From Rhodopirellula halodulae (GTDB lineage: Bacteria; Planctomycetota; Planctomycetia; Pirellulales; Pirellulaceae), in contig NZ_JAJKFV010000029.1 of the NCBI RefSeq assembly GCF_020966775.1, positions 365,001-429,000 of the forward strand: a stretch of DNA of 64,000 bases, read 5' to 3'. The notes below the pieces were generated by a model, which saw nothing but the letters and a program-made list of their open reading frames with translations, was not told where the DNA came from and ran no database searches. The position numbers were made by a program, and so were the translations under genes. Positions 36,385 through 45,603 of the stretch are shown here, piece after piece. How positions within the stretch are numbered: position 1 is the stretch's first letter; each line of letters opens with the position of its first letter.

Positions 36385-37803
36385 ATGCGTCGAACGCTGC
36401 TTCTGATCCCCCACGACATTGCGGGCCTGCCAATCTTTGGCCTCGGTTGGGCTCTGCTGATTTTGTTGATCGCCGTCGGGATCTATTTGGGCTGGGAATC
36501 CCGCAAGGGCGGGCTGGGAGCCGGCAATGCGTTTCGCCAAATCTTTGGGTTCGCCGCGACGGCCGCCGTGATTTTGGTCTTTGTCGTGCCGCGAACCGAG
36601 TTGGTCAACATTGATGGCGACCCGGTGGGGGTGGCCGTTCGTGGGTACGGAATGTTCTTGATGGCCGCGGCGGTCGCGTCCGTGGGGTTGGCGGCTTGGC
36701 GAGCCGAACGCGCGGGATTGGGGGCGGATTCGATTTTGCAGCTCGCCCCATGGACGTTCATCGGCGGTTTGATCGGGGCACGTATTTTCTATGTCACCCA
36801 GTACTACGAGGACTTTCTTCGTCCGACGACTTGGGAAACGATCAAGGCGATGGCCGCGCTGAACCAAGGCGGCTTGGTCGTTTACGGTGGGTTCATCGGC
36901 GGATTCTTGGCCTCTCTGGTGGCGCTTTATCGACATCGGACGCCCATTTGGCGCATCGGTGATGTGATCATTCCCTGCGTGTTTGTGGGGTTGTTTTTCG
37001 GTCGTTTGGGCTGCTTGATGAACGGCTGTTGCTACGGCGGGGCTTGCGAACCAGGACCCTTGGCTGTGCGATTCCCCGCGGGGTCTCAAGTGCACGCGGA
37101 GCAATTGTTGTCCGGTGAGTTGCTGGGGATCGAAGGCAAAGCCCTGTTCAGCGAAGGTGAAATGCCCGCGGGTCAGTCTCGCTGGCTGGTCGAGTCGGTT
37201 CAGCCGGGCTCGTTGGCAGAACGGGCTGGCGCGAGCGAGGGGCAGGAATTGACCATCGCGTTGGATCCTTCCTATCGAGACCAGGTGCCGCTGGATCGTC
37301 CGGCCGAGGAAGCGTTGCCAGGAGTCATCTTGCTAAACGACGACGAAGTTATGGCGAGATTTTCGCCTCAGGAGTTGCCGCCGATTGCGGAACCCGTTTG
37401 GGGCACGCAGATTATCAGTTCCGTGTTCGCCGCAATCACGTTCGTGGTCCTGTTGTTGGTGGAACGAATTCTGCACAGGAAAGCCACGAGGTCGGGAACG
37501 AACGAAACGACGATGGCCGTCGATGAAACGGCGACCACGGAAGATCAGGCGTCCGCCCAACGCGGCCATGCGGGGTACAAACCTGGCGTGCTGATGTTGG
37601 TGGGTTTCATCGCGTACGGAGTGTTGCGAATCGTATTGGAATGGATTCGCGTGGACGAAAAAGGACAATTTGGAACCGCACTTTCGATCTCGCAGTGGGT
37701 CAGTTTGGTGGTGATCACGGCGAGTATTGTCACGCTGGTGATTCGGCTGCGAAGCGGATCATCGGGGACCACCGGGACGGCTGCGGTTTCCGCCACCGGG
37801 TGA
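36385..37803 (+). CDS. lgt: Prolipoprotein diacylglyceryl transferase with a PDZ-like insertion
   Basis: This enzyme transfers diacylglycerol to the lipobox Cys of prolipoproteins in the inner membrane. The Lgt signature reads GRLGCLMNGCCYGG with the essential Arg at 207. Upstream helices contain GYGMFLM and the GGLVVYGGFIGG loop. The protein is 472 aa, against about 260-300 for most Lgt. The extra length is an insertion at about 245-345, after the signature and before the last helices. It contains a PDZ-like segment (WLVESVQPGSLAERAGASEG, then GQELTIAL). A second acidic insert (about 370-395) precedes the penultimate helix (VLMLVGFIAYGVLRIVLEWIR). The Glu/Arg pair in that helix is typical. 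The gene is followed by a separate operon 93 bp away. Confidence 0.9.
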   Translation: MRRTLLLIPHDIAGLPIFGLGWALLILLIAVGIYLGWESRKGGLGAGNAFRQIFGFAATAAVILVFVVPRTELVNIDGDPVGVAVRGYGMFLMAAAVASVGLAAWRAERAGLGADSILQLAPWTFIGGLIGARIFYVTQYYEDFLRPTTWETIKAMAALNQGGLVVYGGFIGGFLASLVALYRHRTPIWRIGDVIIPCVFVGLFFGRLGCLMNGCCYGGACEPGPLAVRFPAGSQVHAEQLLSGELLGIEGKALFSEGEMPAGQSRWLVESVQPGSLAERAGASEGQELTIALDPSYRDQVPLDRPAEEALPGVILLNDDEVMARFSPQELPPIAEPVWGTQIISSVFAAITFVVLLLVERILHRKATRSGTNETTMAVDETATTEDQASAQRGHAGYKPGVLMLVGFIAYGVLRIVLEWIRVDEKGQFGTALSISQWVSLVVITASIVTLVIRLRSGSSGTTGTAAVSATG

Positions 37804-37896: not shown

Positions 37897-38904
37897 ATGA
37901 ATGCCATGAAGATCGCTTGTTTCAGCACCAAACCATACGACCAACACTTCCTGACGGCGGCTTCGGAGGACTCGCCACACGAGTTCCTGTTCCTGGAGCA
38001 TCGTTTGGATGCGTCCACTGTGGTTCTGGCGGATGGATGCAATGCGGTCTGCGCGTTCGTCAATGACACGCTGGATCGATCGGTGTTGGAACAGTTGCGT
38101 GAAATGGGAGTTGGGTTGTTGGCCATGCGTTGCGCTGGGGTCAACAATGTCGATTTGGAAGCGGCCGCCGAATGTGGAGTGCGAGTCGTTCGCGTACCGC
38201 GATATTCGCCGTATGCGGTCGCGGAACACACCGTCGGATTGATTTTGACGCTGAACCGAAAGATTCACAAAGCTTACAACCGAGTCCGCGAGAACAACTT
38301 TTCGATCGATGGGTTTCTCGGTTTTGATTTGCACGGACGAACGTTCGGGGTGATTGGTACCGGAGCGATCGGTCGAGTGCTCGCGGGGATCATGAAGGGA
38401 TTTGGTTGTCGGGTGCTTCTCTATGATCCGTATCCCAATGAAGAGGGCAGAAAGCTGGGGGAATACGTTGAGCTGGAACGATTGCTGGCCGAATCTGACT
38501 TGGTTTCGCTGCAGTGCCCGCTGACTCCGGAGACCTACCATTTGATTGATGCGGACCGGCTGAGCAAAATGAAACGCGGCGCGATGTTGGTCAACACATC
38601 GCGTGGTGGGCTGGTCGACACATCGGCCGCGATTGAAGGTTTGAAATCAGGACAGTTGGGCGGGTTTGCTTTGGACGTCTATGAAGAAGAAACGGGTGTG
38701 TTCTTCGAAGACCTTTCGCAACAAGTGGTCCAGGACGACGTGTTGTCACGACTGATGACCTTTCCCAACGTGTTGATCACTTCGCATCAGGCGTTTTTCA
38801 CTCGAGAAGCATTGGAAACCATTGCTCAGACAACGATGGAAAGCATCGATGCGTTTGATGCTGGGCGAGCGTTGGACAACGAAGTGGTTGCTTCCTCATC
38901 ATGA
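37897..38904 (+). CDS. D-2-hydroxyacid dehydrogenase (D-lactate dehydrogenase type)
   Basis: A 335-aa NAD-dependent dehydrogenase of the D-isomer family. A second ATG three codons in (37906) begins MKIACFSTKPYDQ and may be the start. The Rossmann motif is GVIGTGAIGRVLAG. The catalytic triad is visible: Arg in VNTSRGGLVDT, Glu in DVYEEETG and His in ITSHQAFFTREA. Overall similarity is to LdhA-type enzymes, including YDQHFL near the N-terminus. Its stop overlaps the next gene by 4 bp (ATGA), so it is the first gene of the polyketide operon or is read together with it. A link of a lactate-type enzyme to that pathway is not obvious. Confidence 0.9.
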   Translation: MNAMKIACFSTKPYDQHFLTAASEDSPHEFLFLEHRLDASTVVLADGCNAVCAFVNDTLDRSVLEQLREMGVGLLAMRCAGVNNVDLEAAAECGVRVVRVPRYSPYAVAEHTVGLILTLNRKIHKAYNRVRENNFSIDGFLGFDLHGRTFGVIGTGAIGRVLAGIMKGFGCRVLLYDPYPNEEGRKLGEYVELERLLAESDLVSLQCPLTPETYHLIDADRLSKMKRGAMLVNTSRGGLVDTSAAIEGLKSGQLGGFALDVYEEETGVFFEDLSQQVVQDDVLSRLMTFPNVLITSHQAFFTREALETIAQTTMESIDAFDAGRALDNEVVASSS

Positions 38905-39656
38905 CCTCTGTGCGTGTTCGAAGCGATGAATGGATGGATGACCCGGATTTGGATCCGGAGCGTCATCGACAGGCTTTGATTGGTTTGGCAAGGCTGAACC
39001 GAATCAGCTTGGTTTCGCGTGTTTTCTTTCCGCGATTGGCAAGGTTAGCCGGGAAACAGCCGGGGCGACCTTTGCGAGTGTTGGATGTTGCCAGTGGAAG
39101 TGCTGATCTTCCAATCAATTGGTTGGTACGTGCTAAGCGAGCGGGGTTGTCTTTGGAAGTCACCGCACTGGATCGCAGTGAGACCGCAATGCGAATCGCG
39201 GGCGAAAACGCGAAAGCGGCTGGGGTGACGTTGGGAACAACGGTCCGCGATTGTTTGGCCGATGGTTTGCCAACCGGATTTGATGTGGTTACGAATTCGT
39301 TGTTCATGCATCACCTGGAAAACCATCAGGCCGTGCGTTTGATTCAAGAGATGTGGAGGGCCAGTGAGCGGTCTGTGTTGATTTGCGATCTGGATCGATC
39401 GGCGATGAACTTGGCGTTGGTCGCGGTGGCTTCGCGAGTGGTGTCGCGCAGTGACGTTGTGCATCACGACGCCATCGAAAGTGTTCGCGGCGCGTTCAGT
39501 CGTCCCGAGTTCGCCTCGTTGATGCGGCAAGCGATGGGGTATGACATTCCCGTGCGGGTGTCGTTCCCGTGTCGTTTCTTGGCGGTGATTGATCAAGCCT
39601 GTGTGGCGGAGGTGGTGCAAAACTCTCGGCCGATTCTTTCGGGTGCCATTCCCTGA
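38901..39656 (+). CDS. SAM-dependent methyltransferase (operon gene 2)
   Basis: A 251-aa class I methyltransferase. SAM motif I is LRVLDVASGSADLPINW, motif II LDRSETAMRIAG, and motif IV is near FDVVTNSLFMHHLENHQAV. The latter is of the type found in ubiquinone/menaquinone and polyketide methyltransferases. It overlaps the dehydrogenase gene by 4 bp upstream and the flavoprotein gene by 1 bp downstream (TGATG), a sign of translational coupling. In type III polyketide clusters a methyltransferase often methylates the phenol or pyrone. That is the likely role here, by context. Confidence 0.85.
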   Translation: MTSVRVRSDEWMDDPDLDPERHRQALIGLARLNRISLVSRVFFPRLARLAGKQPGRPLRVLDVASGSADLPINWLVRAKRAGLSLEVTALDRSETAMRIAGENAKAAGVTLGTTVRDCLADGLPTGFDVVTNSLFMHHLENHQAVRLIQEMWRASERSVLICDLDRSAMNLALVAVASRVVSRSDVVHHDAIESVRGAFSRPEFASLMRQAMGYDIPVRVSFPCRFLAVIDQACVAEVVQNSRPILSGAIP

Positions 39657-41014
39657 TGGCATGGGGGCATTCCGGTCCACCGTCCAACGATCCGACCGAT
39701 GAAAGAAAAACTGTCTGCCAAGACATCGGCCGCGTGGCGGTGATTGGTGGCGGGCCAGCGGGTAGCGCCGCGGCAACGCGACTGGCTCACCGTGGGGCAG
39801 AGGTGACGTTGTTCGAACGAGCTGAATTCCCGCGAGAGAAAGTGTGTGGGTGTTGCTTGGGAGCCGCCGGGTTGGCGGCGTTGGATGCAATCGGTGTTGG
39901 GCAATCCGTGCGTGAGCTCGGACAGCCCACGACATTCTTTCATGGTTACTTTCAAACCGGCCGGGGCGGAACGAGAGAAGAGCGAATTCATTCGACTCGC
40001 GGAGTCCGCATTCCAATCGTGCAAGGAACCGCTCTTTCGCGGTCGCAATTGGATTTGAATTTGTTGCGTTGGGCGGAGCAGGCCGGAGTCAACGTCCAGC
40101 AGCCTTGCGGAGCGACGATCGTGTCGCAGGATCCCAGTGGCGTTTGGGTGGAATCGGAATCGGGTGGATCTCAGCGATATGACTTGGTCGTGATCGCAAC
40201 TGGACTGACCGGAAAGTTCAGGCAGTCTGGGGCGGCGGAGTTGGCTTGGAAGCAAACGCCTCATGGTCCGATGGGCATATCCACGCATTTGCCACGCCAG
40301 ATTGCCGAAGAAATGGCGTGGCAATTGGAGGACGGTGAGATCCAAATGCACTGTGGCGAGGAAGGGTATGCGGGCGTGGTGCAGTTGCCCGGCGGTGACC
40401 TCGACATTGCGGCGGCGGTTCACGTGCGGCCCCGAAATTCAAAGGAAGATCATGCCGGGAAGCGAGCCATCGAGGCTGCCGTGGAGTCTTTGTTGTTGAA
40501 TTCCAATGCGTTGAATTCGCGTCAATCGGATCGTTTGCGTCAATGGTTCGCCGAGGGGGCGAGCTGGCAAACAACGCCTGCGCTTCGACGAAAACGGGTC
40601 GCTGGAAACGGGCGCGTCGTGGCGATTGGTGATGCTGCCGGTTATGTTGAGCCCCTGACGGGAGAAGGCATGACTTGGGGAATTGAAAGCGGATTGGCGG
40701 TGGCGGATCTTTGGGCTTTGTATCAGTCCGGACGAATCACGGCTGACAAAGAACCTAATTTTGGTGCACACTGGCACGCACGAGCGACGAAGTTTCAAAC
40801 CCGACGCCGCCGCCTTTGTGGTTGGGTCACCGGATGGGTTCGATATCGTCCGGCTCGCTGGTTGGCACGAGGTGGATTGCAACGTGCCGGTTGGTTGGCT
40901 GCTCCCTTCACACGTAGCCTCGCAATCGGACCACGATTCGAATCCACGACTACTCTTCAACGTCCACTCGCGAGCATCGCGGACGCATCCCATCGGACTC
41001 ACCCCTCTTCATGA
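39656..41014 (+). CDS. Geranylgeranyl-reductase-like FAD-dependent oxidoreductase
   Basis: A 452-aa flavoprotein. The N-terminal FAD motif is VAVIGGGPAGSAAATRLA followed by the acidic strand end LFERAEFPREKVCGCCLG. The C-terminal GD motif is AIGDAAGYVEPLTGEGMTWG. Both fit the geranylgeranyl reductase/PHBH-like group, which includes hydroxylases, halogenases and double-bond reductases. Upstream and downstream genes overlap by 1 and 4 bp. In the alkylresorcinol clusters of Streptomyces a flavoprotein hydroxylates the ring, and by analogy this enzyme may oxidise or reduce the polyketide product. The C-terminal about 80 residues after the GD motif are basic and rich in Arg. Confidence 0.87.
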   Translation: MAWGHSGPPSNDPTDERKTVCQDIGRVAVIGGGPAGSAAATRLAHRGAEVTLFERAEFPREKVCGCCLGAAGLAALDAIGVGQSVRELGQPTTFFHGYFQTGRGGTREERIHSTRGVRIPIVQGTALSRSQLDLNLLRWAEQAGVNVQQPCGATIVSQDPSGVWVESESGGSQRYDLVVIATGLTGKFRQSGAAELAWKQTPHGPMGISTHLPRQIAEEMAWQLEDGEIQMHCGEEGYAGVVQLPGGDLDIAAAVHVRPRNSKEDHAGKRAIEAAVESLLLNSNALNSRQSDRLRQWFAEGASWQTTPALRRKRVAGNGRVVAIGDAAGYVEPLTGEGMTWGIESGLAVADLWALYQSGRITADKEPNFGAHWHARATKFQTRRRRLCGWVTGWVRYRPARWLARGGLQRAGWLAAPFTRSLAIGPRFESTTTLQRPLASIADASHRTHPSS

Positions 41015-42117
41015 CAGCTCAGATTCTTGCGATTGCGACGGCGCACCCGACGCATCAGGCCGATTTGGCATTCTCGACGCACTGCGCCCAAAGTATGTCG
41101 TGCGAGGACGAAACTCAGGCCAATAAACTCGCCAAATTGTATCGCCGCACGGGCGTGGACACTCGCGGAAGCGTGTTGGTAGAAAAAGGCGACGCGGGCG
41201 AGTTGACTCAATCGTTCTATCCTCCGTTGGTGGATGGAGACGATCGCGGTCCCACCATGGAAACTCGTAATGACCGTTTCGCGGCGGAGGCTCCCGCGTT
41301 GGCAACCCAAGCCGGTCAGCGAGCGATCGACGCCAGCGGCGTGAAGCCATCGGAGATCACGCATGTGGTGACGGTGACTTGCACCGGATTCAATGCTCCC
41401 GGCATCGACGTTCAATTGATCGAACGGTTGAACCTACCTGTGACAACCCAGCGTGTTCAGGTTGGATTCATGGGGTGCCACGGATTGATCAATGCCATGC
41501 GAACCGCGCGTGGCTTGGTTGCGGTGGAACCCGAGGCGGTGGTGTTGATCGTCTGTATTGAGCTTTGCAGTTTGCATTACCAATATGGTTATGACGCACA
41601 GCGGATCGTGTCGGGATCTCTGTTTGCCGATGGGTCAGCAGGATTGATCGTCGCTGGCGCAGAGTCCTCGAATCGCGATGGTCATTCGGATCCGATCGGC
41701 GAGATACTGACGGTGGGATCTTGTTTGATTCCTGATAGTCAAGACGCGATGACGTGGCGAATCGGTGACAATGGATTCATCATGACTTTGGAAGCCAGCG
41801 TGCCGGGATTCATCGAGGCCAACCTGCGTGGCTTCATGGAACCTTGGTTGGCGAAGGCCGGTTTGACTCTGGATCAGATCGGTGGCTGGGCCGTGCATCC
41901 CGGCGGTGTCCGGATTCTGCAATCGGTGGAAGTGGCACTCGGACTGGAACCGGACGCACTGGACATTTCCCGTGAGGTGCTTCGAGAGCACGGGAACATG
42001 TCGTCGGCCACGCTGGGCTTTGTATTGCAGAAATTCACGCAGCGCCGTGTCCCCGGACCGTGGCTGATGCTGGGGTTTGGTCCCGGTTTGGAAATCGAAG
42101 TCGCCGTGGTCCGCTGA
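41011..42117 (+). CDS. Type III polyketide synthase (chalcone/stilbene synthase family)
   Basis: A 368-aa homodimeric ketosynthase that extends a CoA-linked starter with malonyl-CoA. The catalytic triad is complete: Cys156 in GFMGCHGLINA, His296 in AVHPGGVRIL and Asn329 in EHGNMSSAT. Near the C-terminus, MLGFGPGLEIE is the GFGPG motif that marks this family and separates it from FabH. The sequence VTCTGFNAPGIDVQLIERL precedes the active site, as in bacterial alkylpyrone and alkylresorcinol synthases. It overlaps the flavoprotein gene by 4 bp (ATGA). Starter unit and product cannot be read from the sequence. Long-chain acyl starters are common in bacterial relatives. Confidence 0.95.
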   Translation: MTAQILAIATAHPTHQADLAFSTHCAQSMSCEDETQANKLAKLYRRTGVDTRGSVLVEKGDAGELTQSFYPPLVDGDDRGPTMETRNDRFAAEAPALATQAGQRAIDASGVKPSEITHVVTVTCTGFNAPGIDVQLIERLNLPVTTQRVQVGFMGCHGLINAMRTARGLVAVEPEAVVLIVCIELCSLHYQYGYDAQRIVSGSLFADGSAGLIVAGAESSNRDGHSDPIGEILTVGSCLIPDSQDAMTWRIGDNGFIMTLEASVPGFIEANLRGFMEPWLAKAGLTLDQIGGWAVHPGGVRILQSVEVALGLEPDALDISREVLREHGNMSSATLGFVLQKFTQRRVPGPWLMLGFGPGLEIEVAVVR

Positions 42118-42156
42118 GGTCTTCTGATCGGCTTCCGGCGAGGCTATCTTGGTGAC

Positions 42157-43020
42157 ATGAATATCACCAAATGCATTGATTCGTCAGGTCAGACCCGAGT
42201 GGCAGTGGTTGAAGACGACCGGTTGATCCCGCTGCAAACGACCGCTGAGTTGCCCACGTTGTCCGCGATTTTGGCGTCGGGAAACCCGAAAGCCGCGGCG
42301 GAAACGCTTGCAAGAGACGAACCGATCGCGATCGACGATTCGACGCGGTGGCTTCCGCCGATTGACCAGCAAGAAGTCTGGGCTGCTGGGGTGACGTACA
42401 AGCGAAGCCAAACGGCTCGGATGGAAGAATCCGAAGCGGCGGCGTCTTGTTATGACCAGGTCTACAACGCGGATCGGCCGGAGATTTTCTTCAAGGCCAC
42501 GCCGTCACGTGTCAGTGGCCACGGCCAACCACTCCGCATTCGTGTGGACGCCAAGTGGAATGTGCCGGAACCCGAGATCACGCTGGTGCTCAGTCCGACG
42601 TTGAAGATCGTCGGGCTAACCGTCGGCAACGACATGAGTTCGCGAGACATTGAGGGCGAGAACCCGCTCTATTTGCCGCAAGCGAAGTGCTATGACCAGT
42701 GTGCGGGGTTGGGACCATGGATCACTCTGTTTGATGAGTTGCCAAGTGTCGACGCGATCACGGTGGACTTGAAAATCGTGCGTGATGGCGACGTGGTGTT
42801 TGATCAGTCCACCTCGGCCGCTGAAATGGCTCGTAAGTTTGACGATCTGGTGCAGTGGTTGGGACGCGACAACACGATGGCGGACGGGGCGTTCCTGATG
42901 ACAGGAACGGGGATCGTTCCGACCAGCGATTTCACGCTGCATCCTGACGATGTGGTCAACATCACGATTGGTTGTGTGGGCACGTTGTCCAATCGCATTG
43001 TCCAAGGGCCAACGTCTTAA
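42157..43020 (+). CDS. Fumarylacetoacetate hydrolase family protein
   Basis: A 287-aa protein of the FAH fold. Metal ligands are in the E-x-E motif VPEPEITLVL and in the following VGNDMSSRDIEG segment. The C-terminal GTGIVPTSDFTLHPDD is the family active-site loop. Members cleave C-C bonds of fumarylacetoacetate-like diketo acids or dehydrate sugar acids (2-dehydro-3-deoxy-D-arabonate dehydratase type), and this sequence resembles the latter subgroup somewhat more. It lies 39 bp downstream of the polyketide synthase on the same strand. It could process a diketo intermediate, or be a passenger. Confidence 0.87.
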   Translation: MNITKCIDSSGQTRVAVVEDDRLIPLQTTAELPTLSAILASGNPKAAAETLARDEPIAIDDSTRWLPPIDQQEVWAAGVTYKRSQTARMEESEAAASCYDQVYNADRPEIFFKATPSRVSGHGQPLRIRVDAKWNVPEPEITLVLSPTLKIVGLTVGNDMSSRDIEGENPLYLPQAKCYDQCAGLGPWITLFDELPSVDAITVDLKIVRDGDVVFDQSTSAAEMARKFDDLVQWLGRDNTMADGAFLMTGTGIVPTSDFTLHPDDVVNITIGCVGTLSNRIVQGPTS

Positions 43021-43044
43021 ACCCGAGCGTTGGTTGGGCTCGTG

Positions 43045-43989
43045 ATGGATTTCGATTCCGAGCATCACGCGAAGCGAGATGTGATCTCGCAAAGCCGCTT
43101 GCCTTTGGCGTGTTGGTGGAACGTGTTGTCGTTGGACGCCGTCACCGTCGCGGTGCTGTGGCAAGCTGTTTTCTTGCTCTCGTTTTGTGACCGTCTGCCT
43201 GAGCCACACGAATCGTTTTCGTTGGGGGCGGTTGTTTGGTTGATCTATGTCGCGGATCGTTTGCTGGACGGATCGCGATTGAACCTGAGTGAGCCTCATT
43301 TGGTCCGGCACCGAATGCATCACGATTTCGCGAGACGGTGGATCATCGCGTGGTGTTTGGTGCTGGCGTCGGCGTGTGCCGTGGTCGTCGCATGGTTAGA
43401 CGCGGCGATTGTTCGCATGGGGTTGATGGTTGGTGCATCGGTGATGATCTACGGTGCTGGGGTTCATTTTTGGCCCGGCGATTTACCGCGACGCCGCATG
43501 GTCGGGAAGGAAATTCAGGTCGGCGTGATTTTCGCTGCCGGAGTCAGCTTGATCGCTTGGCAAGAGTCCGCCAGTTGGTCCTTGGCCTTCGCGAGTGTGG
43601 CATCGGCCGGGTTGTTCACGGCCAATTGTTGGTTGGTGGCTGAACGCGAATCGACGGCAGACCAGGACTTTCACGAATTGAGTTTGGGGTATCGATTTCG
43701 CACGGTGACCGTTTGTGTTGCCGTGGTTGTATCGGCGTTCTTGTCGTGGATGACCGGGTGGCTTCCGTGGTTGATGGCGGCGAGCCTGTTGGTCGGAGTT
43801 GGGTTTCTGTCATTGACGAAGCTGCTTTGGACACGTGGTGAGCCGCAGACGCGGCAATACGGGCGTCGGTCTTTCGGGGAAGGTGGCAGACGCCCGCTCT
43901 TTGACGCGTGGGTGCCAATGGCAGATTGGTCATTGATCCTTTCACCGTTGGTGTGCTGGGCGGTAGTCTTGAGCTGGGATCTGATTTGA
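43045..43989 (+). CDS. UbiA-like polytopic membrane protein
   Basis: A 314-aa membrane protein with about eight hydrophobic helices. The start is the ATG at 43045; in-frame TTG 43030 and GTG 43042 precede it. An Asp-containing motif IYVADRLLDG lies at the end of the second helix, matching the first DxxxD-type prenyl-diphosphate motif of UbiA prenyltransferases. The second aspartate-rich motif is not clear: ERESTADQDFHEL is the best candidate. The family call is therefore tentative. If right, it would attach a prenyl chain to the aromatic polyketide at the membrane. It lies 24 bp after the FAH-family gene, and its stop overlaps a methyltransferase start. Confidence 0.6.
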   Translation: MDFDSEHHAKRDVISQSRLPLACWWNVLSLDAVTVAVLWQAVFLLSFCDRLPEPHESFSLGAVVWLIYVADRLLDGSRLNLSEPHLVRHRMHHDFARRWIIAWCLVLASACAVVVAWLDAAIVRMGLMVGASVMIYGAGVHFWPGDLPRRRMVGKEIQVGVIFAAGVSLIAWQESASWSLAFASVASAGLFTANCWLVAERESTADQDFHELSLGYRFRTVTVCVAVVVSAFLSWMTGWLPWLMAASLLVGVGFLSLTKLLWTRGEPQTRQYGRRSFGEGGRRPLFDAWVPMADWSLILSPLVCWAVVLSWDLI

Positions 43990-44663
43990 ACCGGAATCCT
44001 TCACGATCCGAGCGAGGCTACGATCGATTGGCGGGATGGTATTGGTTGCTGGAACAACCCGTCTTTCGACGTGACCTGCAACGCGCGAGAGAGGCTTGCT
44101 TGGTTGATCTGCCGCCGATGAAACGTATTTTGATGCTTGGCGACGGTGACGGAAGGTTGCTGCAAAAAGTCTTGATGACTCAGCCGCAGGCAAAGGTTGT
44201 CAGCGTTGAGCAAAGCTCTGAGATGATCGCACTGCAGAAACGACGGGCGGCATCGGTGGACGCCTCGCATCGAGTCGAATGGATCCAAGGGGATGCGATC
44301 ACTGTTCCGCTGCAGACCGGCTCCTTCGACTGTTTGGTGGCTGCGTTTTTCTTGGATTGCTTCACCGAGGTCGAGCTGAGTCATTGTTTGCCGGGGTGGC
44401 TGTCTTGTGTGGCGAACGACGGATTCTTTTACCACGTCGATTTCGTAATTCCGGAAAATGGATGGCGTCGGATGCGGGCAAAGTTTTGGAGCTGGATCAT
44501 GCATCGATTCTTTCGCTGGCAAACGGGGCTTCAATCGGCGAGTGTCGTCCCAGTGGAGCCGTTGTTGGATTCAAAGGTGTGGGCGGAGCGGTCCCGGCGT
44601 GAACTGAATCACGGTTTCATCCGCAGCGTTCTCTATCAACGTCGTTCAAGTCAGCTTTGTTAA
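43986..44663 (+). CDS. SAM-dependent methyltransferase (last gene of the operon)
   Basis: A 225-aa class I methyltransferase from the TTG at 43986, which overlaps the previous stop by 4 bp (TTGA). A GTG at 43953 is an alternative. Motif I is ILMLGDGDGRLLQKVL, motif II reads VVSVEQSSEMIALQKRR, and motif IV is FDCLVAAFFLDCF. The N-terminal sequence GYDRLAGWYWLLEQPVF is of the type seen in UbiE-like and phospholipid N-methyltransferases. The substrate is unknown; the place in the operon points to a second methylation of the same product. Three 15-bp tandem repeats lie directly downstream. Confidence 0.8.
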   Translation: MNRNPSRSERGYDRLAGWYWLLEQPVFRRDLQRAREACLVDLPPMKRILMLGDGDGRLLQKVLMTQPQAKVVSVEQSSEMIALQKRRAASVDASHRVEWIQGDAITVPLQTGSFDCLVAAFFLDCFTEVELSHCLPGWLSCVANDGFFYHVDFVIPENGWRRMRAKFWSWIMHRFFRWQTGLQSASVVPVEPLLDSKVWAERSRRELNHGFIRSVLYQRRSSQLC

Positions 44664-44844: not shown

Positions 44845-45603
44845 ATGAATGATTCCACTCTCGATCCTCCCGGCTCCATTGTTGTGATTGGCACGACGGT
44901 GCTGGGGATCGAAGCGGCTCTGTATGGCCGGTTTCTTGGTTATGACGTTACACTGGTCGGCGGTGCTGATGCTTGGTCCGATCGCTCTGAGTTGGACCCT
45001 GCTGTCCGCCGGATCGGACCGACGGGGCGGGGCGATTGGTTGGATCGGCATTGGCTGTCAGGCCGAAGTATTCCAGAGGCCTGGGGCGATGCATCGCCGA
45101 TGTTGCCTGATCGTAGTTTGTCTTCGTTGGCGCTGAATGCGATCGCAGCTCAGCGAGGCGACGAAATTCCCGCGGCGCTGCCGGTGACCCTGGGGGAATG
45201 GATCACGGATGGTTTGCTCGCCGTGACTCGTTCCGATTTGCTTCGTGGCCGAGTCATGCCCGACGCGATCGTCACGTCCGTGGAAACGGTCGACGTGGAA
45301 GATGAGGACGACGACGATGGGCAAATCCCGCCGGACTACCTGTTGAAGTACCAGTTTCTTGAAGCGTCAGACGAGGCATTGCCCGAATCGCAGCAATGCG
45401 AATGTGTGATTGTTGCCGGGTTACAAGGAGACCATGTTGAATGGTCCAAGCCGGAGTCCGATGAGTATTGGTTTGAGTTGTCTGAGTCTGATGACGAGAA
45501 CGCCGAAACTATGTTGCGAGATGGCTACCAGCAAATTGTCGCCGTCTACGCCCAATTGATGGGGCGCGAAGAGCTCGATCTTTATCGGCCTCAGCGAGGT
45601 TGA
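44845..45603 (+). CDS. Unknown protein with an N-terminal Rossmann-like segment
   Basis: A 252-aa protein. From the ATG at 44845 the N-terminus reads IVVIGTTVLGIEAALYGRFL followed by DVTLVGG, the beta-alpha-beta pattern of an NAD- or FAD-binding fold; the first Gly triplet is imperfect (GTTVLG). The middle holds LPVTLGEWITDGLLAVTRSDLL. The C-terminal half is very acidic (EDEDDDDGQ, ESDDENAE), which argues for a protein-protein role or a divergent oxidoreductase. It is separated by about 180 bp from the polyketide operon and converges on the AAA ATPase gene with a 9-bp gap. An oxidoreductase role in the adjacent pathway is possible but unproven. Confidence 0.55.
   Translation: MNDSTLDPPGSIVVIGTTVLGIEAALYGRFLGYDVTLVGGADAWSDRSELDPAVRRIGPTGRGDWLDRHWLSGRSIPEAWGDASPMLPDRSLSSLALNAIAAQRGDEIPAALPVTLGEWITDGLLAVTRSDLLRGRVMPDAIVTSVETVDVEDEDDDDGQIPPDYLLKYQFLEASDEALPESQQCECVIVAGLQGDHVEWSKPESDEYWFELSESDDENAETMLRDGYQQIVAVYAQLMGREELDLYRPQRG

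What the first reader, a model, noticed from the sequence alone, without database searches (positions are those of the whole stretch)
37897..44663. Compact type III polyketide operon with two methyltransferases, a flavoprotein and a UbiA-like protein
Seen: seven same-strand genes, with overlaps of 4, 1 and 4 bp, gaps of 39 and 24 bp, then a 4-bp overlap. The polyketide synthase has its full C156/H296/N329 triad. Known: bacterial type III PKS genes often sit with a methyltransferase and a flavoprotein, making alkylresorcinols, alkylpyrones and phenolic-lipid quinones (Streptomyces srsABC, Bacillus bpsAB). Inferred: adding a UbiA-like protein, a FAH-family enzyme, a second methyltransferase and a D-2-hydroxyacid dehydrogenase points to a longer route, perhaps to a methylated and prenylated or lipid-linked phenol or quinone in the membrane. 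I know of no characterised pathway with this exact set.
Basis: partly seen in the sequence, partly recalled or inferred. Interest (0 to 1): 0.78.

Follow-up and report, generated by a model that had tools for sequence, protein, structure and literature searches.

The report
Known alkylresorcinol genes plus unrelated neighbours
Three of these seven genes are an already published bacterial set for making fatty phenols, while the other four look like separate genes that came to sit beside it in one group of marine bacteria; two of those four, a membrane protein and a methyltransferase, turn up side by side in many distant bacteria and have no known job.

Summary
In detail: seven same-strand genes, gaps -4, -1, -4, +39, +24, -4 bp, PKS triad C156/H296/N329. 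The reading as one seven-gene pathway is only partly supported.

MT1-FDO-PKS (38901-42117) is the hidABC-type alkylresorcinol cassette published for Planctomycetota; the R. baltica PKS gave 5-heptadecylresorcinol in C. glutamicum (PMC10896814). The other genes are separable. The full string occurs in 5 of 12 same-genus relatives, where flanking genes are collinear too; in none of 21 other-genus genomes with a strong PKS hit. The first gene resembles fermentative D-lactate dehydrogenase. The FAH gene resembles 2-keto-3-deoxy-arabinonate dehydratase and occurs in 52 of 60 genomes. The UbiA-like protein (UBI) and second methyltransferase (MT2) form their own pair in five phyla, adjacent in 33 of 42 named loci; 41 of the 42 show no PKS hit nearby.

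UBI and PKS co-occur strongly in Pirellulales (19 of 20 UBI+ genomes), weakly and probably through genome size in Cytophagales. A joint pathway is possible but unproven. The undescribed UBI-MT2 pair is the most novel element.

The parts
37897..38904 (+). DHD, D-2-hydroxyacid dehydrogenase, closest to fermentative D-lactate dehydrogenase; probable bystander
   Evidence: PF02826/PF00389; PDB 5z20 fermentative D-LDH E 5.1e-118; beside the PKS in 7 of 33 neighbourhoods; in 30 of 60 genomes at E<=1e-40, mostly elsewhere
38901..39656 (+). MT1, SAM methyltransferase of the alkylresorcinol cassette (HidA position)
   Evidence: PF13649; NCBIfam NF004851 252.7 bits, cut-off 243; MT1-FDO-PKS together in 23 of 33 PKS neighbourhoods (my reading of the table)
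39656..41014 (+). FDO, FAD-dependent oxidoreductase (HidB position)
   Evidence: PF01494; TIGR02032 geranylgeranyl reductase family below its cut-off
41011..42117 (+). Type III polyketide synthase, predicted alkylresorcinol synthase, triad C156/H296/N329
   Evidence: PF00195, PF02797; 82% identical to the PKS of genome G004, whose single contig has the length of R. baltica SH 1; R. baltica RB8853 was assayed in PMC10896814
42157..43020 (+). FAH-fold protein, closest to 2-keto-3-deoxy-D-arabinonate dehydratase; probable bystander
   Evidence: PF01557; PDB 2q18 E 9.3e-61; 52 of 60 genomes at E<=1e-20, beside the PKS in 5 of 33 neighbourhoods
43045..43989 (+). UBI, divergent UbiA-superfamily-like membrane protein; DxxxD kept, preceding N-D replaced
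43986..44663 (+). MT2, SAM methyltransferase that travels with UBI
   Evidence: PF13649; adjacent downstream of UBI in 33 of 42 named loci

Best explanation
The functional core is MT1-FDO-PKS, a hidABC-type alkylresorcinol cassette. The PKS takes a long acyl starter, adds three malonyl-CoA and closes the ring to a 5-alkylresorcinol (product shown in print for the R. baltica enzyme; inferred for this orthologue). MT1 then methylates the ring or its oxygens and FDO probably hydroxylates or oxidises it, giving a methylated alkyl-hydroquinone-like lipid (inferred; in print the G. maris pair added one methyl group, and the oxidoreductase's role is open). The four other genes became neighbours in one Rhodopirellula clade: a D-lactate-dehydrogenase-like gene, a sugar-acid-dehydratase-like gene, and the independent UBI-MT2 pair. 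UBI-MT2 most likely transfers a prenyl or similar group in the membrane and methylates the product (inferred from fold and partner); its substrate is unknown.
For: PMC10896814 sections 12 and 15 for the cassette and its product. Order and domains here. Neighbourhoods: FAH, UBI and MT2 beside the PKS in 5 of 33; the trio together in 23 of 33. R. europaea 6C, a named record, has the full string (L161). UBI, MT2, FAH and DHD relatives elsewhere in genomes that keep the PKS. In 41 of 42 named UBI loci no PKS hit (phmmer E<=1e-10) in the fetched stretch, at most 10 kb a side and shorter on short contigs; MT2 adjacent in 33 of 42. R. sallentina and 12 of 86 UBI+ Cytophagales genomes have UBI without a type III PKS hit. 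D-LDH and KdaD matches. In the clade LGT upstream and the 44845 gene downstream are collinear too, so order conservation there is not specific to the seven genes.
Against: Tight packing (4-bp overlaps at DHD/MT1 and UBI/MT2, short gaps around FAH) suggests one transcript in this species and could reflect a shared role. UBI+ genomes in Pirellulales nearly always carry the PKS: 19 of 20 against 96 of 276 without UBI. DHD sits upstream of MT1 also in G011 and, in another genus, G023, so its link is older than the clade. In 5 of 8 examined loci the FAH relative follows a DPPIV-type peptidase gene, not a sugar-acid gene (Pfam run on one, the rest by clustering).
Confidence: 0.75

Rival explanations
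1. One reading: UBI-MT2 acts on the PKS product, prenylating and further methylating the alkylresorcinol or hydroquinone, while DHD and FAH are bystanders.
For: Physical joining in the window and 5 relatives. Co-occurrence in Pirellulales: 19 of 20 UBI+ genomes with PKS against 96 of 276, p 8e-8, not corrected for kinship; 15 of 16 against 9 of 21 in the fully listed 37-genome family sample. 27 of 41 UBI+ genomes have a PF00195 hit at E<=1e-12 (29 of 41 at 1e-5). Prenylation of alkylresorcinols is reported for Actinoplanes missouriensis, and one cyanobacterial hierridin-like cluster has a prenyltransferase gene (passages in PMC10896814 and PMC8086630).
Against: UBI is confined to one family in the order survey; counted by genus in the 37-genome sample it is 4 of 4 against 9 of 21, p 0.096. 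In Cytophagales it is 74 of 86 against 105 of 155, and 13 of the 16 genomes lacking both whose size is listed (16 of 50) are under 3 Mb, so genome size probably explains much of it. 12 of 86 UBI+ Cytophagales genomes lack a PKS hit. In 41 of 42 named loci no PKS hit lies near UBI.
Confidence: 0.17
2. All seven genes form one dedicated pathway.
For: Spacing and shared strand; order kept in 5 of 12 same-genus relatives.
Against: String absent in the other 7 of 12 same-genus relatives and in 21 of 21 other-genus genomes with a strong PKS hit (a few of these contigs are short); FAH found in 52 of 60 genomes, mostly as one copy; DHD fits D-LDH; flanking genes equally collinear in the clade.
Confidence: 0.05
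3. The PKS makes alkylpyrones or another type III product rather than alkylresorcinol.
For: The product class cannot be read from the triad; the best NCBIfam match is DpgA, far below its cut-off (172.1 against 425 bits); two planctomycetal enzymes outside such operons gave no product in PMC10896814.
Against: The assayed R. baltica, G. maris and S. maiorica enzymes gave alkylresorcinols (PMC10896814).
Confidence: 0.06

Closest known systems
Planctomycetal three-gene alkylresorcinol operon (Milke et al. 2024, PMC10896814; R. baltica RB8853)
   Same: Methyltransferase - FAD oxidoreductase - type III PKS in that order; the presumed R. baltica genome (G004) has the same seven-gene string.
   Different: The paper calls adjacent genes not conserved except in close relatives. 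A term search of its main text found no 'dehydrogenase', 'fumarylacetoacetate', 'UbiA' or 'second methyltransferase'; its figures and supplements were not seen.
Cyanobacterial hidABC (hierridin B; Costa et al. 2019 as described in PMC10896814 and PMC8086630)
   Same: Same gene order and kinds of enzyme; PMC10896814 reports 48-55% protein identity between planctomycetal and cyanobacterial proteins.
   Different: HidA O-methylates, the G. maris enzyme probably C-methylates. HidABC sequences were not compared here.
LA_0991 family prenyltransferase-like protein (NCBIfam NF047439)
   Same: All 42 members of the UBI alignment match it at E<=1e-3.
   Different: The window protein scores 46.8 bits against a cut-off of 300; I found no paper on its function.
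UbiA superfamily prenyltransferases (PDB 4od4, 4tq4)
   Different: N and D at the start of the classical first motif (recalled) are I/V and Y here; the window protein does not match PF01040.
Streptomyces srsABC, Bacillus bpsAB (recalled)
   Same: Type III PKS with a methyltransferase and, for srs, a flavoprotein.
   Different: Not compared by sequence here.

Membership tests
hidABC-type alkylresorcinol cassette of Planctomycetota | Methyltransferase - FAD oxidoreductase - type III PKS on one strand with short gaps or overlaps | tested here: met
hidABC-type alkylresorcinol cassette of Planctomycetota | Type III PKS with Cys-His-Asn triad | tested here: met
   C156, H296, N329 by motif; PF00195 and PF02797
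hidABC-type alkylresorcinol cassette of Planctomycetota | Orthology to an enzyme shown to make alkylresorcinol | tested here: met
   82% identity to the only strong PKS hit of G004; G004's contig of 7145576 bases has the length listed for R. baltica SH 1; RB8853 is the R. baltica gene assayed. RB8853 was not fetched by name.
hidABC-type alkylresorcinol cassette of Planctomycetota | Product is a 5-alkylresorcinol | not testable with these tools
   Needs an assay
hidABC-type alkylresorcinol cassette of Planctomycetota | Sequence similarity to cyanobacterial HidA, HidB, HidC | not tested
   No HidABC sequence was on hand; 48-55% is the paper's figure
UbiA superfamily prenyltransferase (UBI) | UbiA fold | tested here: met
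UbiA superfamily prenyltransferase (UBI) | First motif NDxxDxxxD (recalled) | tested here: not met
   In 12 of 12 sequences, D71 and D75 are kept, but position 68 is Tyr and 67 is I or V. The 42-sequence alignment agrees at 68, 71 and 75, but one of its scan patterns contained part of this stretch, so that agreement is partly built in.
UbiA superfamily prenyltransferase (UBI) | Second motif DxxxD (recalled) | tested here: inconclusive
   E202 and D206 are nearly invariant and E202; no residue-level match to a solved structure was made
UbiA superfamily prenyltransferase (UBI) | Match to PF01040 over cut-off | tested here: not met
   No Pfam match for the window protein; 7 of 42 family members match at E<=0.01, best 1e-8
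2-keto-3-deoxy-D-arabinonate dehydratase (FAH gene) | Closest solved relative, and an aldehyde dehydrogenase partner | tested here: inconclusive
   2q18 E 9.3e-61; aldehyde dehydrogenase directly downstream in 2 of 8 examined loci (Pfam on one, the other by clustering), a peptidase upstream in 5 of 8; neither in the window
Fermentative D-lactate dehydrogenase (DHD) | Closest relatives are D-LDH | tested here: inconclusive
   5z20 E 5.1e-118, but below the NCBIfam D-LDH cut-off (209.5 against 356 bits); activity not testable

The most novel reading that the evidence does not exclude
UBI-MT2 is an undescribed two-gene lipid-modifying module, a UbiA-fold transferase with a rebuilt first metal motif plus a dedicated methyltransferase, kept side by side in five phyla. 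In the R. baltica clade it has been joined to the alkylresorcinol cassette because it acts on that product, so these bacteria make a prenylated (or otherwise alkylated), multiply methylated alkyl-hydroquinone: a polyketide-derived membrane quinone distinct from menaquinone.
Probability: 0.15. Interest if true: 0.7.

Novelty: new member of a known kind. Interest (0 to 1): 0.38.

Why it matters
It turns a guessed seven-gene pathway into something testable: a published three-gene alkylresorcinol cassette whose function in planctomycetes is still open, and next to it a conserved gene pair with no known role. If the pair acts on the alkylresorcinol, it would help explain why the heterologous host made only the core compound with at most one methyl group. 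If it does not, it is an unassigned membrane-protein/methyltransferase pair present in Planctomycetota, Acidobacteriota, Bacteroidota, Verrucomicrobiota and Deinococcota (phyla as read from the record titles).

Tried and rejected
1) One seven-gene pathway: rejected as the main reading because the string holds in 5 of 12 same-genus relatives and in 0 of 21 other-genus genomes with a strong PKS hit.

2) Co-occurrence as proof that UBI-MT2 serves the PKS: it looked strong in Pirellulales (19 of 20 against 96 of 276) and across phyla (27 of 41 at E<=1e-12), so I ran a control in the order of Agaribacillus (Cytophagales, by recall). There it was 74 of 86 against 105 of 155 (Fisher p 0.002), but of the 50 genomes lacking both, 16 have a listed size and 13 of these are under 3 Mb. 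I do not count it as evidence of a shared pathway. A full size-controlled or kinship-corrected table could not be made, as matchless genomes are not all listed.

3) Profile-profile comparison of UBI with four UbiA proteins (heme O synthases by my reading of their neighbours) gave no match (probability 0.4%). The UBI profiles found no PDB chain up to E 10 or only unrelated ones from E 0.33. Fold and single-member hits carry the UbiA claim instead.

4) UBI as the only UbiA of the genome: rejected, as three PF01040 matches over the cut-off lie elsewhere in the genome.

5) Promoter and terminator scan: no clear excess over shuffles. Paper searches for LA_0991 (one unrelated paper) and for a UbiA-like/methyltransferase pair (none) gave nothing; searches on UbiA with type III PKS gave listings that I did not open except PMC8086630. 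No preprints are held.

Full report
OBSERVATION. Family matches: 2-hydroxyacid dehydrogenase (DHD), methyltransferase (MT1), FAD oxidoreductase (FDO), type III PKS, FAA-hydrolase fold (FAH), no Pfam match (UBI; NCBIfam LA_0991-like, 46.8 bits against a cut-off of 300), methyltransferase (MT2). The PKS has C156, H296 and N329. Upstream is a prolipoprotein diacylglyceryl transferase gene (LGT), downstream an ORF at 44845-45603 with no match over a cut-off.

THE CORE IS PUBLISHED. Milke et al. 2024 (PMC10896814; I read the abstract, sections 12 and 15, and passages) report 96 type III PKS genes from 131 planctomycetal species, 58 of them last in a methyltransferase-oxidoreductase-PKS operon like cyanobacterial hidABC. 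The R. baltica gene RB8853 expressed in C. glutamicum gave 5-heptadecylresorcinol; the G. maris and S. maiorica genes gave alkylresorcinols too; two enzymes outside such operons gave no product. Adding the G. maris methyltransferase and oxidoreductase gave one methylation, probably on carbon. They state that adjacent genes are conserved only in close relatives. Genome G004 here has a contig of 7145576 bases, the size listed for R. baltica SH 1 (one passage of PMC4712552); its only strong PKS hit is 82% identical to the window PKS and lies in the same seven-gene string. So the assayed enzyme is very probably this gene's orthologue.

NEIGHBOURHOODS. Of 60 genomes (the window's own, 12 of the same genus, 24 of the same family, 23 of the same order) 33 have a strong PKS hit (E<=1e-60, my reading). 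I fetched 33 PKS neighbourhoods from the other 32 genomes (one genome gave two; a few lie on short contigs, one of 3.1 kb). FAH, UBI and MT2 flank the PKS in 5 (G002, G004, G005, G007, G010, all same genus); DHD in 7 (those 5, G011 of the same genus, G023 of another); MT1-FDO-PKS stand together in 23 (my reading of the table). In the five, LGT upstream and the 44845 gene downstream are collinear as well, so order conservation there is general synteny.

THE EXTRA GENES LIVE ELSEWHERE IN RELATIVES. FAH: 52 of 60 genomes at E<=1e-20, mostly one copy; in G001, of the same genus, only a distant one (36% identity). Its best solved relative is 2-keto-3-deoxy-D-arabinonate dehydratase, E 9.3e-61. In 2 of 8 examined loci an aldehyde dehydrogenase follows directly, as expected for sugar-acid oxidation (recalled); in 5 of 8 a DPPIV-type peptidase precedes it (Pfam on one of each, the rest by clustering). 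DHD: 30 of 60 at E<=1e-40; best solved relative fermentative D-lactate dehydrogenase, E 5.1e-118. UBI: 16 of 60, with MT2 beside it in each of the 16 by coordinates (it lists 18 of 60, the other two weak).

THE UBI-MT2 PAIR. One scan of named genomes with a 12-sequence UBI alignment gave 42 loci; titles name Planctomycetota, Acidobacteriota, Bacteroidota, Verrucomicrobiota, Deinococcota and one deltaproteobacterial MAG (phylum names recalled from titles). MT2 is adjacent downstream in 32 of 42 by a distance rule, plus L175 by eye (33 of 42). Two others are cut by contig ends (L181, L186); seven show no MT2 hit beside UBI, one of these (L176) with only 449 bases left. In most the frames overlap or nearly touch; L165 has about 430 bp and L173 about 100 bp between them. 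Only 1 of 42 loci (R. europaea, of the clade) has a PKS hit at phmmer E<=1e-10 in the fetched stretch, at most 10 kb a side. Ten loci of Bacteroidota hold a gene whose cluster representative I read as ATP synthase gamma subunit. Of 20 stretches around PF00195 hits fetched from UBI-bearing genomes outside Planctomycetota, none holds a UBI hit (in one, L220, the script found no PKS frame); 8 of the 20 hold both MT1-like and FDO-like genes within 5 kb, at family-level similarity only.

DOES THE PAIR SERVE THE PKS? For: in 296 Pirellulales genomes 19 of 20 UBI+ genomes have the PKS against 96 of 276 without UBI, p 8e-8; 15 of 16 against 9 of 21 in the fully listed 37-genome family sample, p 0.0016; 27 of 41 UBI+ genomes have a PF00195 hit at E<=1e-12. 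Against: these counts ignore kinship, and UBI is confined to one family in that order; by genus it is 4 of 4 against 9 of 21, p 0.096. In 241 genomes of the order of Agaribacillus (Cytophagales, recalled) it is 74 of 86 against 105 of 155, p 0.002, but of the 50 genomes lacking both, 16 have a listed size and 13 of these are under 3 Mb, so size and completeness probably account for much. 12 of the 86 UBI+ genomes there (8 of them of 3 Mb or more) and R. sallentina lack a type III PKS hit. I therefore treat a link as possible, not shown.

CONCLUSION. The window holds a new orthologous copy of a published alkylresorcinol cassette, in a clade-specific string with a D-LDH-like gene, a sugar-acid-dehydratase-like gene and the independent UBI-MT2 pair.

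Noticed in passing
window 44845-45603: ORF of about 252 aa with only weak sub-cut-off Rossmann-type Pfam hits at its start, next to the string; conserved at 69-74% identity in the five clade members and without a hit in the other 28 PKS neighbourhoods.
   Followed up: partly
window 36385-37803: Prolipoprotein diacylglyceryl transferase gene of 472 aa with two Pfam stretches; it also lies near the PKS in G003, G009, G011 and G023.
   Followed up: no
L186-L191, L193, L194, L197, L198: Ten loci of Bacteroidota hold genes that look like the ATP synthase operon near the UBI-MT2 pair (read by eye from cluster representatives); no explanation here accounts for this repeated context.
   Followed up: no
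L148:2917-4578 (G025): UBI frame with 205 residues before the likely start and runs of SSHPSS-like repeats near the C-terminal end.
   Followed up: no
L207-L226: 8 of 20 stretches around type III PKS hits in Bacteroidota, Deinococcota and Acidobacteriota also hold MT1-like and FDO-like genes within 5 kb, which hints that similar cassettes reach beyond planctomycetes and cyanobacteria.
   Followed up: partly
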